DNA of 40,497 nucleotides from an uncultured Oscillospiraceae bacterium (GTDB lineage Bacteria > Bacillota > Clostridia > Oscillospirales > Oscillospiraceae). Positions within the stretch are counted from its first letter, which is position 1; each line of letters starts with the position of its first letter. The notes under the pieces were generated by a model, which was not told the DNA's origin, made no database searches, and saw only the letters and a program-made list of their open reading frames with translations. Below are positions 7,239-10,200 of this stretch, piece by piece. Where the stretch lies: contig CAKUED010000025.1 of the NCBI GenBank assembly GCA_934646005.1, positions 1 to 40,497 on the forward strand, given 5' to 3'. Position numbers and translations under genes: made by a program.

Positions 7239-10200
7239 ATGAAAAAACGACTGTTGAGCTGGCTGCTGATTTTGGCGCTTTGCCTGTCGCTGCTGCCTGC
7301 GGCGGCACTGGCGGAGGACGCGCCGGAGCAGACCGAAGCGCCCGTAGTCCGGGAGCAGACCGAAGCGCCAACCGTTCAGGAGCGGATGGAGTCTGTCCAG
7401 ACGGTGAACGATACCGCTACGCAGGCGACCTATCAGGTTTTTGTAAGACCGCTCGCTGGAATGAAAAATATTACGCTGACCGTCAGTTCGACGGACACGG
7501 TTCTTTCCTTGAAGAAGCAGGTCGAGAACAAGGAAAGAATCCCCGTTGACCAGCAGCGTTTGATCTTCGCTGACAAGCAGTTGGAAGATGATAAAACGCT
7601 TGGGGAGTATAATATTCAAAAGGAAGCCACGATCCATCTGGCGATACGGCTGGCTACCCATGACGACAGCCACCCCATCTGCGGCGCGGCGCACACCGAC
7701 ATCGGCGACCATACCGCAGATAAGTGCGCCAATGTGACGTGGACGGCATGGAACGGCGTGGACGCGATCCCGTATGATTCCAACAACACCGCCTACGTCT
7801 ATCTGTCGGGTAACGCGAAGCGGACGGAGATCCTGACTGTGGCAGCGGGCTATAAGCTCTATCTCTGCCTCAACGGGTACAGCCTCACGAAAACCACCGA
7901 GGACAGCAACCCGGGTTTTGAGGGCGTCATCACGATTTATCAAGGTGCGCAATTTACGCTGTGCGATTGCAAGGGCGGCGGCAAGATCACCCACGCGGAA
8001 GGTATGCTCGGCAGGGGCGTGCGGTGCGGTGGTCCCAGCAGTAACAGAGCCACCTTTGCCATGTTCGGCGGTGAGATCAGCGGCAACCGTGCGGGCACCT
8101 CCGACGCAGGACAGGACGGCGCCGGTGTTGAGGTACACAACGCAATTTTTAACATGTACGGCGGCAGGATCATCCATAACGAGGTCGCTGTGCCGTCAAG
8201 CTACGACGGCGGCGGTGTGTGTGCGCATACCGGCGGCAGCTTTACCATGTACGGCGGCGAGATCAGCGGCAACACGTCGGCGAGAGATGGCGGCGGCGTA
8301 TCGGTAGTAGGCGTGCCCTTCACCATGAAGGGCGGCAGCATCACCAACAACACCGCCAGCGCTGGCGATGGCGGCGGCGCAGCCCTTTATAATGGTACAT
8401 TCGAGCTGTCCGGCGGCACGATCACCGGCAACAGCGCGACCAAAAACGGCGGCGGCGTGTATATGAATAAATATTCGGACAACAGGCTCACCGTCTCCGG
8501 CGACGTGACCATCACTGGCAACAGGAATGCGAGTGGGGCGGATAATAACGTCTATCTGTCGAGCGGCATGTACATGATCGTCACCGGCGAACTGAAAAAT
8601 GTCATCGGCGTGACCACGGAAAGCGTGCCCTCGGCGAGCAATGCGGTGATGATCGCCGCCAACGGCGGCTACATGACCGAGGCGATGAAAGACCACTTTG
8701 TCTACGATCTGGCGGGCGACTGCAAGAGCGTATATGACAACCGGGCGATCTATCTGAAAGTCATCCCCCACGAGCACCCCATTTGCGGCGCTACTCACAC
8801 GAACATCAACGGTCACACGGGTGAGTGCAGCTATGTGAAATGGACGGCATGGGACGGCGTGAGCGACATCACCTATTATGAGAACAACACCGCCTACGTC
8901 TATCTGACGACCAACGCAGAGCGGACGTCCGCCCTTGAGATCGCGCAGGGCAACACGCTCTATCTCTGTCTCAACGGGCACAGCCTCACAAAGAACGCGG
9001 ACTTCAAGTCTGCCATCAAAATCGGAAACAACGCGACATTCTCTCTCTGTGACTGCTCAGAAGCACAGTCTGGCAAGATCACCCACGGGACAGGTACTTA
9101 CGGTAAGTACACTGGTCACGGCGTGAACCTCGGCTACCAAAGCACGTTCAATATGTACGGCGGCAGCATCACCGGCAACCGCGCCGACACGGGCGGCGGT
9201 GTGGAGCTTAATTACGGAAATAATAATTCCAAATTCAATATGTACGGCGGCAGCATCACCAACAACGCTGCCACAAACGGCGACGGTGGCGGCGGCGTGC
9301 ACATTCTGGCGGGCACGTTCACCATGTACGGCGGCAGCATCACCGGGAACACGGCGGACACCAACTATGGCGGCGGCGGTGTGTATCTGGGCGGCTCAGG
9401 AAAATTTCACATGAAGGGCGGCAGCATCACCGACAACACCGCCAAAAACGGCGGCGGTGTGTATATGTATGCAAACGGAGTTAGCGTCTCCGGCAGCGTG
9501 ACCATCACCGGCAACAAGAATGCAGATGGCAAGGATGAAAACGTCTATCTGAATAGCAACGTGTACTTCTACATCAACACGGACGGGCTGAACGCGGACA
9601 GCGAAATCGGCGTGACCGCTGCCAATGACATCGCCTCCGGCGAATATGTCAACGTCACCTATTGCGCCGACCGCAGCTACACCGAAGGCAGCATCTTCAG
9701 CGACAAGCCCGAATATGACACCCTGCGGTGGAAAACAGATGTGCGGCTCTACAACGGTCTGCCCCATGTGCACCCCGAATGCGGCGACAAGACCTGCACA
9801 AGTGACTCCCATGCCGTCAGCACCATGTGGATGCCTGTCAGCACGGAAGAGGACCTGAAGAAGGTCACGCGGCAGGGCACGTACTACCTGACGAATGACA
9901 TTGAGCTGACCAGCTCCTTTACGATCAACGAGTTCGGCGTCCACCTCTGCCTCAACGGCTACAGCCTTATTGCCAAGGGGAATTTTGACGTCATCACCCT
10001 CCCGGACGCCTGGGGTCTGTACACCCCTTCCCTCACCGTTTGCGACTGCAACGCCAGCGGCAGCGGAAACGCCAAGATCACCCACGCGGAGGGTAAGACC
10101 GGGCGCGGTGTGTGTATGGGCTTCGGCGCGAATTTTGACCTGTATGGCGGCAGCATCACCGGCAACCATGTCAATGGTGACGGCGGCGGCATTTATGCAA

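What the first reader, a model, noticed from the sequence alone, without database searches (positions are those of the whole stretch)
7431..7655. Full-length ubiquitin-like domain in a secreted bacterial SLH protein
Seen: residues 65-139 of the giant surface protein align end to end with eukaryotic ubiquitin, about 43 of 73 positions identical by hand, including DQQRLIFA and YNIQKE. L8, I44, H68 and five ubiquitin lysines are conserved, but RLATHDD replaces the di-glycine. Known: bacterial beta-grasp relatives such as ThiS, MoaD or YukD are far more divergent, while a close secreted ubiquitin has been reported in Bacteroides fragilis. Inference: eukaryote-derived transfer (47% GC against a richer flank), exported and wall-anchored, where it could mimic host ubiquitin or bind ubiquitin-recognising host proteins without being conjugated. 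The domain sits at the outermost end of the protein.
Basis: partly seen in the sequence, partly recalled or inferred. Interest (0 to 1): 0.95.

Follow-up and report, generated by a model that had tools for sequence, protein, structure and literature searches.

The report
Swappable ubiquitin head on bacterial surface
A giant bacterial protein that is predicted to sit on the cell surface carries a domain 59% identical to human ubiquitin, which near-identical proteins have, lack or replace like a cassette; it has lost the tail needed for ordinary tagging, and it likely serves as an outward-facing binding head.

Summary
Residues 65-138 of a 2,824-residue ORF (7431-7652) match human ubiquitin at 43 of 73 aligned positions, score 82-89 bits with PF00240, and are predicted to fold as ubiquitin (pLDDT 90.8; best PDB match ubiquitin, 0.6 A). 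The di-glycine is absent. It is no chimera: 44 further database proteins carry it at the N-terminus of SLH proteins.

Two things go beyond the finding. First, the domain is an optional cassette. P0047 agrees at 62 of 64 residues before it and 447 of 456 after it, yet has no ubiquitin. Of 16 retrieved proteins with this leader (the window's included), 5 have ubiquitin, 3 a divergent ubiquitin-like domain, 1 a crossover of the two, 7 neither. Second, near-perfect ubiquitins behind signal-peptide-like leaders occur in many bacteria, including 13 isolate loci from three phyla, coupled to dockerin, autotransporter, SLH or other anchors, sometimes as the only recognised payload.

Best reading: a captured, di-glycine-less ubiquitin displayed as a swappable N-terminal head that likely binds a partner outside the cell. 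The partner is unknown. Host mimicry through the I44 patch is weakly supported, and a broader sample of bacterial ubiquitins argues against it as a general rule. Direct transfer from a eukaryote is not shown.

The parts
7100..7127 (+). promoter-like site upstream of the gene (TCCACA-16-TACAAT)
   Evidence: consensus match only
7227..7234 (+). ribosome-binding-site-like GAGGAGGG before the ATG
   Evidence: read in the sequence
7239..15713 (+). ORF of the giant surface protein, 2,824 aa
7239..7313 (+). signal-peptide-like N-terminus (residues 1-25)
   Evidence: read by eye; no predictor run
7314..7427 (+). linker (residues 26-63) with a 27-nt tandem duplication at 7325-7383
7428..7667 (+). optional cassette (residues 64-143): present here, replaced by three residues in P0047, replaced by a divergent ubiquitin-like domain in P0048, P0049 and P0102
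7431..7652 (+). ubiquitin domain, residues 65-138
7653..7667 (+). ATHDD in place of the ubiquitin tail RGG
7671..12029 (+). shared body beginning HPICGAAHTD (residues 145 on), glycine-rich repeats that look like beta-helix by eye; its first part is also found without ubiquitin in other proteins
   Evidence: fold not modelled
12030..12257 (+). best of five MBG_2 stretches
12594..12728 (+). Big_2 domain
14967..15167 (+). Flg_new_2 (divergent InlB B-repeat) domain
15378..15503 (+). best of three SLH domains (predicted wall anchor)

Best explanation
A captured ubiquitin domain without the di-glycine sits as an optional cassette between the predicted signal peptide and the shared body of a predicted wall-anchored protein, where it likely works as a displayed binding head that would not be conjugated. 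Shown: ubiquitin sequence; no di-glycine in any of the 44 SLH proteins of the ubiquitin type examined, the window's included; presence, absence, replacement and one crossover of the cassette in otherwise closely similar proteins. Predicted: export through the signal peptide, anchoring by the SLH repeats, a ubiquitin fold (AlphaFold2). Inferred: the head faces outward at the far end from the anchor, meets a partner outside the cell by non-covalent contact through a ubiquitin-type surface, and is exchanged between strains by recombination, so that strains differ in what they bind or in how they look to binders. Untested: the partner, which could be a ubiquitin-recognising protein of a eukaryotic host or protist, or a protein of another bacterium as for Bacteroides fragilis BfUbb.
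For: Homology and fold. Same layout elsewhere: one search lists 45 proteins, one a eukaryotic polyubiquitin and 44 with PF00240 and SLH; 43 of those 44 plus P0001 have the ubiquitin type, ending [RL]L and then [PST]HT or ATHDD, and P0007 is a hybrid. Cassette: P0047 against P0001 is 62 of 64 before and 447 of 456 after the cassette; of 16 retrieved proteins with the MKKRLLSWLL leader (P0001 included), 5 ubiquitin, 3 divergent, 1 hybrid with the switch inside the shared TLTVSSTDT, 7 none. Displayed ubiquitin elsewhere: 65 of 80 loci kept have a hydrophobic stretch (mean hydropathy of 2 or more over 11 residues) just before the ubiquitin; of 64 of these scanned, 12 carry autotransporter barrels, 12 dockerins, 4 SLH. 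L001, L012, L018 and L062 are leader, ubiquitin and dockerin with no other family except sub-cutoff EF-hand matches in two, and L050 and L073 are leader and ubiquitin only, which argues that the displayed ubiquitin is itself the payload. Constraint: in 15 of 18 homologous pairs the ubiquitin part has lower dN/dS than the rest of the same protein (1 higher, with dS 0.02; 2 saturated). I44 patch in the SLH clade 0.99 against 0.70 overall.
Against: No binding partner, expression or export is shown. The cassette is dispensable (7 of 16). The divergent type at the same site has lost I44, H68, V70 and K48, so the ubiquitin reading surface is not required at this site. In 18 profile-sampled bacterial ubiquitins the I44 patch is no better kept than other positions (0.64 against 0.75, 88% of random draws as high); the best-kept positions include many that I recall as structural (D21, K27, K29, D52, T55, D58, Y59). 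The I44 test in the SLH clade is weak (0.057 against all positions, 0.022 against exposed ones, the list of buried positions being recalled; in the window subclade of 4, 0.09 and 0.05), and its rows were found through shared words. The pairs were picked by me from a set selected for ubiquitin similarity, which lowers ubiquitin divergence, and they share members. Six of the 65 loci with a leader keep RGG, so loss of the di-glycine is not universal outside the SLH clade.
Confidence: 0.5

Rival explanations
1. Host mimicry: the domain imitates host ubiquitin and is bound outside or inside host cells by ubiquitin-recognising proteins through the I44 patch.
For: L8, I44 and H68 are identical in all 24 distinct SLH-clade domains and V70 in 23 of 24, while mean identity to human ubiquitin is 0.70. 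Extracellular ubiquitin has reported, contested receptors such as CXCR4 (PMC10892293, passages seen).
Against: The window's own copy has V70A. The divergent type at the same site lacks the patch. Profile-sampled bacterial ubiquitins do not favour the patch. Leader-bearing ubiquitins occur in isolates such as Dyella, Conexibacter and Loktanella, whose record titles name no animal host. The habitat of the window's organism is unknown.
Confidence: 0.2
2. Structural cap: ubiquitin is kept only as a very stable, fast-folding N-terminal module that protects the end of the surface protein or helps its folding after export; no partner exists.
For: In 18 profile-sampled bacterial ubiquitins many of the best-kept positions look structural and the I44 face varies. 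The cassette can be replaced by a divergent ubiquitin-like domain.
Against: Minimal proteins of leader, ubiquitin and dockerin, or leader and ubiquitin alone, leave little or nothing for a cap to protect. Near-identical proteins do without it.
Confidence: 0.2
3. Antibacterial use: like BfUbb of Bacteroides fragilis, the domain inhibits competing bacteria on contact or after release.
For: BfUbb is a secreted bacterial ubiquitin without di-glycine (PMC3352274) and inhibits other B. fragilis strains (PMC5705921, first part and passages seen); sensitivity depends on a residue of a peptidyl-prolyl isomerase (seen only as cited in PMC12396204). Presence and absence of the cassette in near-identical proteins fits competition between strains.
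Against: The domain here is part of a giant anchored protein and lacks the C-terminal cysteine of BfUbb. An immunity gene was not searched for beyond the Pfam scans.
Confidence: 0.1

Closest known systems
BfUbb (ubb) of Bacteroides fragilis
   Same: Secreted bacterial ubiquitin with a signal sequence, no di-glycine, 63% identical to human ubiquitin (PMC3352274, abstract and passages), present in some strains only.
   Different: BfUbb is a free protein of 76 residues when mature, ends in cysteine and has antibacterial activity (PMC3352274, PMC5705921); here the domain is an internal cassette of a 2,824-residue SLH protein, 59% identical, with no cysteine tail.
Eukaryotic ubiquitin
   Same: Sequence, predicted fold, I44 patch except V70, K48 and K63.
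   Different: No di-glycine, one-residue insertion, fused on both sides, predicted to be exported.
'Ubiquitin family protein' of Ruminococcus albus 7 plasmid pRUMAL01 (WP_013483628.1)
   Same: Leader followed directly by a ubiquitin domain (PF00240, 106 bits), in an annotated complete record.
   Different: 246 aa, no SLH match, near dockerin and phospholipase C genes on a plasmid typed as mobilizable.
SLH proteins with HPxCG, MBG_2, YDG or Big_2 repeats
   Same: Body and anchor of the window's protein; P0047 agrees at 447 of 456 residues just downstream of the cassette.
   Different: 112 of the 120 listed have no PF00240 in their precomputed domains.
Bacterial operon-encoded ubiquitin-like systems (Bil type, recalled)
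   Same: Ubiquitin-like fold in bacteria.
   Different: As I recall them they are cytoplasmic with E1, E2 and peptidase genes beside them; none was recognised among 30 ORFs of this window.

Membership tests
Ubiquitin family (PF00240) | Profile match above the curated cut-off | tested here: met
   82.3 and 89.4 bits against 25.4
Ubiquitin family (PF00240) | Beta-grasp fold | tested here: met
   AlphaFold2 pLDDT 90.8, pTM 0.77; best PDB match 5ydr_A (entry with ubiquitin), TM 0.91/0.98, rmsd 0.6; a prediction, not a solved structure
Conjugated ubiquitin modifier | C-terminal di-glycine | tested here: not met
   RLATHDD here; none of the 44 SLH proteins of the ubiquitin type has it
Conjugated ubiquitin modifier | E1, E2 and E3 enzymes in the same organism | tested here: inconclusive
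   No genome is held for the window. None recognised among 30 further window ORFs. E2 (PF00179) in 0 of 20 genomes that carry a ubiquitin match, but no control genome rang either, so absence is not shown
BfUbb-type secreted ubiquitin | Signal peptide followed by ubiquitin without di-glycine | tested here: met
   the signal peptide was judged by eye, with a 39-residue linker before the domain
BfUbb-type secreted ubiquitin | Free small protein ending in cysteine | tested here: not met
   Internal domain of a 2,824-residue ORF, no cysteine at the end of the domain
BfUbb-type secreted ubiquitin | Inhibits related strains | not testable with these tools
   Needs culture work
SLH wall-anchored surface protein | SLH triplet at one end | tested here: met
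   Three SLH stretches, 115 bits in all
SLH wall-anchored surface protein | Exported and bound to the wall | not testable with these tools
   Predicted only
Operon-encoded bacterial ubiquitin-like system | Neighbouring E1, E2 or JAB genes | tested here: not met
   No ThiF, UQ_con or JAB match among 30 chosen ORFs (of 109 mechanical ORFs of 100 aa or more) scanned

The most novel reading that the evidence does not exclude
Bacteria of several phyla have repeatedly captured eukaryotic ubiquitin and turned it into a displayed surface head, coupling it to whatever anchor they own (SLH, dockerin, autotransporter barrel, sorting tails), and in this SLH lineage the head is a recombining cassette that strains gain, lose or swap: an extracellular second life of ubiquitin outside the tagging system.
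Probability: 0.5. Interest if true: 0.88.

Novelty: new variant of a known kind. Interest (0 to 1): 0.76.

Why it matters
Ubiquitin is taught as eukaryotic and intracellular; the bacterial copy studied in the papers I saw, BfUbb, is a free toxin. If ubiquitin is often displayed on bacterial surfaces, and as a strain-variable cassette, it becomes a testable contact point between bacteria and eukaryotes or between bacteria, and a possible source of cross-reacting antibodies or of ubiquitin signals in samples that contain bacteria. Among the 25 (of 32) NCBIfam 20.0 families shown for 64 such proteins there was no secreted-ubiquitin model, only sub-cutoff rad23 matches and models of other parts, so they are easy to overlook or to discard as contamination.

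Tried and rejected
Assembly chimera or eukaryotic contamination: rejected for the window (44 further proteins) and unlikely for the 65 loci with a leader. Fifteen of the 80 loci have no clear leader, and some look like contamination (for example L035, a four-unit polyubiquitin labelled Nitrospinota). Dropped rows: nine loci (L007, L011, L019, L025, L027, L030, L032, L035, L068) were left out, and L015 too; six loci without a clear leader (L015, L055, L061, L067, L075, L079) stayed in the 71. The 42 loci are those of the 80 with at least 600 nt after the domain; they include L019 and L035. Sixteen of 80 were left out of A3: the fifteen without a leader and L023, which holds masked bases. In one search, 18 of the 26 profile-sampled loci were used; L081, L083, L099, L109 and L117 (already known) and the poor matches L086, L116, L118 were left out. 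In one search ten of 160 proteins could not be sorted by their body start; none of the ten has the MKKRLLSWLL leader.

Direct eukaryotic donor: the tree (102 rows, 73 columns) is too short to decide; only 3 of 98 inner branches are starred. Its 25 panel rows called eukaryotic include two units of a giant virus (Hokovirus, P0252). Low GC as proof of transfer: not proof. Phage carriers: no relative confirmed in viral contigs or found in the phage collection; a eukaryotic virus as donor is not excluded. Plasmids: three records match the ubiquitin of L026; the window's DNA 7239-9000 matches no plasmid record. Window organism: not identified; its adenine deaminase is at most 67% identical in 110 genomes of one family, and the one genome held of the best one's genus gave no match to ubiquitin or to the body. 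RNA families: only chance-level matches.

Paper searches listed BfUbb work and nothing that by title or abstract describes a cross-phylum secreted or anchored ubiquitin class; this covers only the open-licence library. Of the papers I saw: PMC3352274 first of four parts and passages; PMC5705921 first of six parts and passages; PMC10892293, PMC12853789 and PMC12396204 passages; the paper by Jiang and others (10.1038/s41564-023-01541-5) only as cited.

Full report
What is there. The window holds a 2,824-residue ORF at 7239-15713 (+). It starts with a signal-peptide-like segment and a linker with a duplicated 27-nt unit, then a ubiquitin domain (residues 65-138), a long glycine-rich body that opens with HPICGAAHTD, five MBG_2 stretches, a Big_2 and a Flg_new_2 domain, and three SLH stretches. 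The ubiquitin domain matches human ubiquitin at 43 of 73 aligned positions with one inserted residue, scores 82-89 bits with PF00240 and 75.9 bits per unit with PDB ubiquitin. AlphaFold2 with a 36-row alignment gives pLDDT 90.8 and Foldseek puts a ubiquitin chain first, rmsd 0.6. The tail is RLATHDD, not RLRGG.

It is not an artefact. A search of 5.8 billion proteins with residues 60-148 listed 45 proteins, one a brittle-star polyubiquitin and 44 with PF00240 and SLH, 64-100% identical over the region. They fall in two groups: the window's, and a second in which the domain follows a longer, helical-looking segment (by eye) and is closer to human ubiquitin (51-55 of 73 positions). Of P0001 and these 44, 44 are of the ubiquitin type and none of them has the di-glycine; the 45th, P0007, is a hybrid.

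The domain is an optional cassette. A second search with the body (residues 142-560) matched 6,039 of 7,990 scored candidates; 120 were listed, of which 8 have PF00240. The best, P0047, agrees with P0001 at 62 of 64 residues before the cassette and 447 of 456 after it, but joins TQA to SHPICG through three residues where P0001 has 80; over the whole remaining length agreement falls to 1,809 of 2,605 aligned positions. Among 160 retrieved proteins (P0001-P0161 without P0002), 16 share the MKKRLLSWLL leader: 5 have ubiquitin (P0001 and P0003-P0006), 3 (P0048, P0049, P0102) a divergent ubiquitin-like domain with 28-30 of 73 positions like human ubiquitin, P0007 starts as the divergent type and continues as the ubiquitin type, with the switch inside the shared TLTVSSTDT, and 7 have neither. 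These shares depend on the two queries and are not population frequencies. The window's cassette has GC3 0.587 where the ORF's own codon use predicts 0.80, as low in 2 of 2,749 windows, as would be expected of a recently exchanged piece.

Leader-bearing ubiquitins are widespread but patchy. A scan of 84,980 species genomes with seven of these domains confirmed 169 relatives, of which the best 80 were kept. In 65 of 80 a hydrophobic leader lies just before the ubiquitin. Thirteen of the 80 record titles are not labelled MAG or uncultured: Conexibacter (2), Pseudohaliea, Loktanella, Rhodobacter, Dyella (2), Sphingomonas, Ruminococcus albus 8, Fontibacillus, Paenibacillus, Cohnella and a Clostridiales strain, that is Actinomycetota, Pseudomonadota and Bacillota; all 13 have the leader. 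MAGs add Verrucomicrobiota, Bacteroidota and others, where binning errors are possible. A complete Ruminococcus albus 7 plasmid carries one. Profile sampling found PF00240 in 5 of 394 genomes of the order of R. albus 8, 10 of 288 of one Verrucomicrobiota-centred phylum sample, 8 of 246 of the Paenibacillus order, 2 of 398 of the Pseudohaliea phylum and 2 of 110 of one family, counts that include genomes already known and two marginal matches near 27 bits without a leader (L116, L118); 0 of 14 control genomes. Two hits (L114, L115) have the domain inside a long protein whose end looks like SLH by eye, not behind a leader.

What they are attached to. Of 64 full proteins scanned, all match PF00240; 12 have autotransporter barrels, 12 dockerins, 4 SLH (25 of 42 families shown), and single cases match an IPTL-CTERM or a T9SS sorting tail. 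L001, L012, L018 and L062 consist of leader, ubiquitin and dockerin; L050 and L073 of leader and ubiquitin. So in several lineages ubiquitin is the only recognised payload, which is my main reason for reading it as a displayed head and not as a spacer. Six of the 65 loci keep RGG after the domain (L003, L050, L064, L070, L073, L078).

Constraint. Over 2,485 pairs of 71 bacterial ubiquitins mean pN is 0.10 and pS 0.86; in 15 of 18 homologous pairs that I chose the ubiquitin has lower dN/dS than the rest of its own protein, in one it is higher and two are saturated. Codon use follows the rest of the gene on average (mean GC3 difference -0.008 over 42 loci, 21 below), which argues for long residence in most of them; L048 and L063 deviate as the window does. 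These sets were picked for similarity. In the 18 profile-sampled ubiquitins the I44 patch is not favoured (0.64 against 0.75) and R42, K48, Q49, V70, L71 and R72 are among the most variable. In the SLH clade the patch is kept (0.99 against 0.70). I therefore give host mimicry 0.2.

Origin. The nine SLH-clade ubiquitins form one branch (SH-aLRT 98) apart from 68 other bacterial rows and 25 panel rows (eukaryotic, two of them from a giant virus), which are not resolved from each other. The ancestor was presumably eukaryotic ubiquitin, but whether one or many captures occurred, and from whom, is open.

Mechanism and rivals. Shown, predicted and inferred steps are separated in the best explanation. 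The commitment is a displayed, swappable binding head that would not be conjugated (0.5), with host mimicry (0.2), structural cap (0.2) and antibacterial use as for BfUbb (0.1) as rivals. The neighbourhood gives no sign of a conjugation system: 30 further ORFs of the window matched no E1, E2 or JAB family.

Novelty. Secreted bacterial ubiquitin is known from BfUbb (PMC3352274, PMC5705921), and the latter calls B. fragilis one of a few bacteria with a eukaryotic-like ubiquitin (passage). My ten searches of the open library listed no report that by title or abstract describes anchored ubiquitins across phyla or a ubiquitin cassette. Hence a new variant of a known kind, with a bolder reading in the novel case.

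Noticed in passing
window 7152-7218: The 5' leader of the gene holds a perfect 24-nt palindrome (7172-7195) next to a second strong hairpin; fold energy -45.5 kcal/mol, z -2.4. Single copy in the window, no Rfam family above chance.
   Followed up: partly
L119 1853-8216 (pRUMAL01 of Ruminococcus albus 7): Leader-bearing ubiquitin gene close to a phosphatidylinositol-specific phospholipase C gene, a dockerin gene and, further on, a transposase, on a plasmid typed as mobilizable.
   Followed up: no
G557:C1:918052-919324 and G685:C27:33392-34502: Two ubiquitin domains about 1 kb apart in each of two genomes of the Verrucomicrobiota-centred sample, possibly tandem genes.
   Followed up: no
L050 and L073: Dyella sp. 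and Sphingomonas canadensis encode a leader plus a complete ubiquitin ending in RLRGG and no other recognised domain, so these could in principle be conjugated by eukaryotic enzymes.
   Followed up: partly
L031: A contig labelled Methanothrix MAG encodes a 1,493-residue protein with leader, ubiquitin and a long tail, a possible archaeal case or a binning error.
   Followed up: no
L114 and L115: Two genomes of the Paenibacillus order have a divergent ubiquitin domain inside long proteins with SLH-like ends, away from any leader.
   Followed up: no
window 21491-22537 and 23844-25127: A second SLH protein and a LysM plus glycosyl hydrolase 18 protein in the same window.
   Followed up: no
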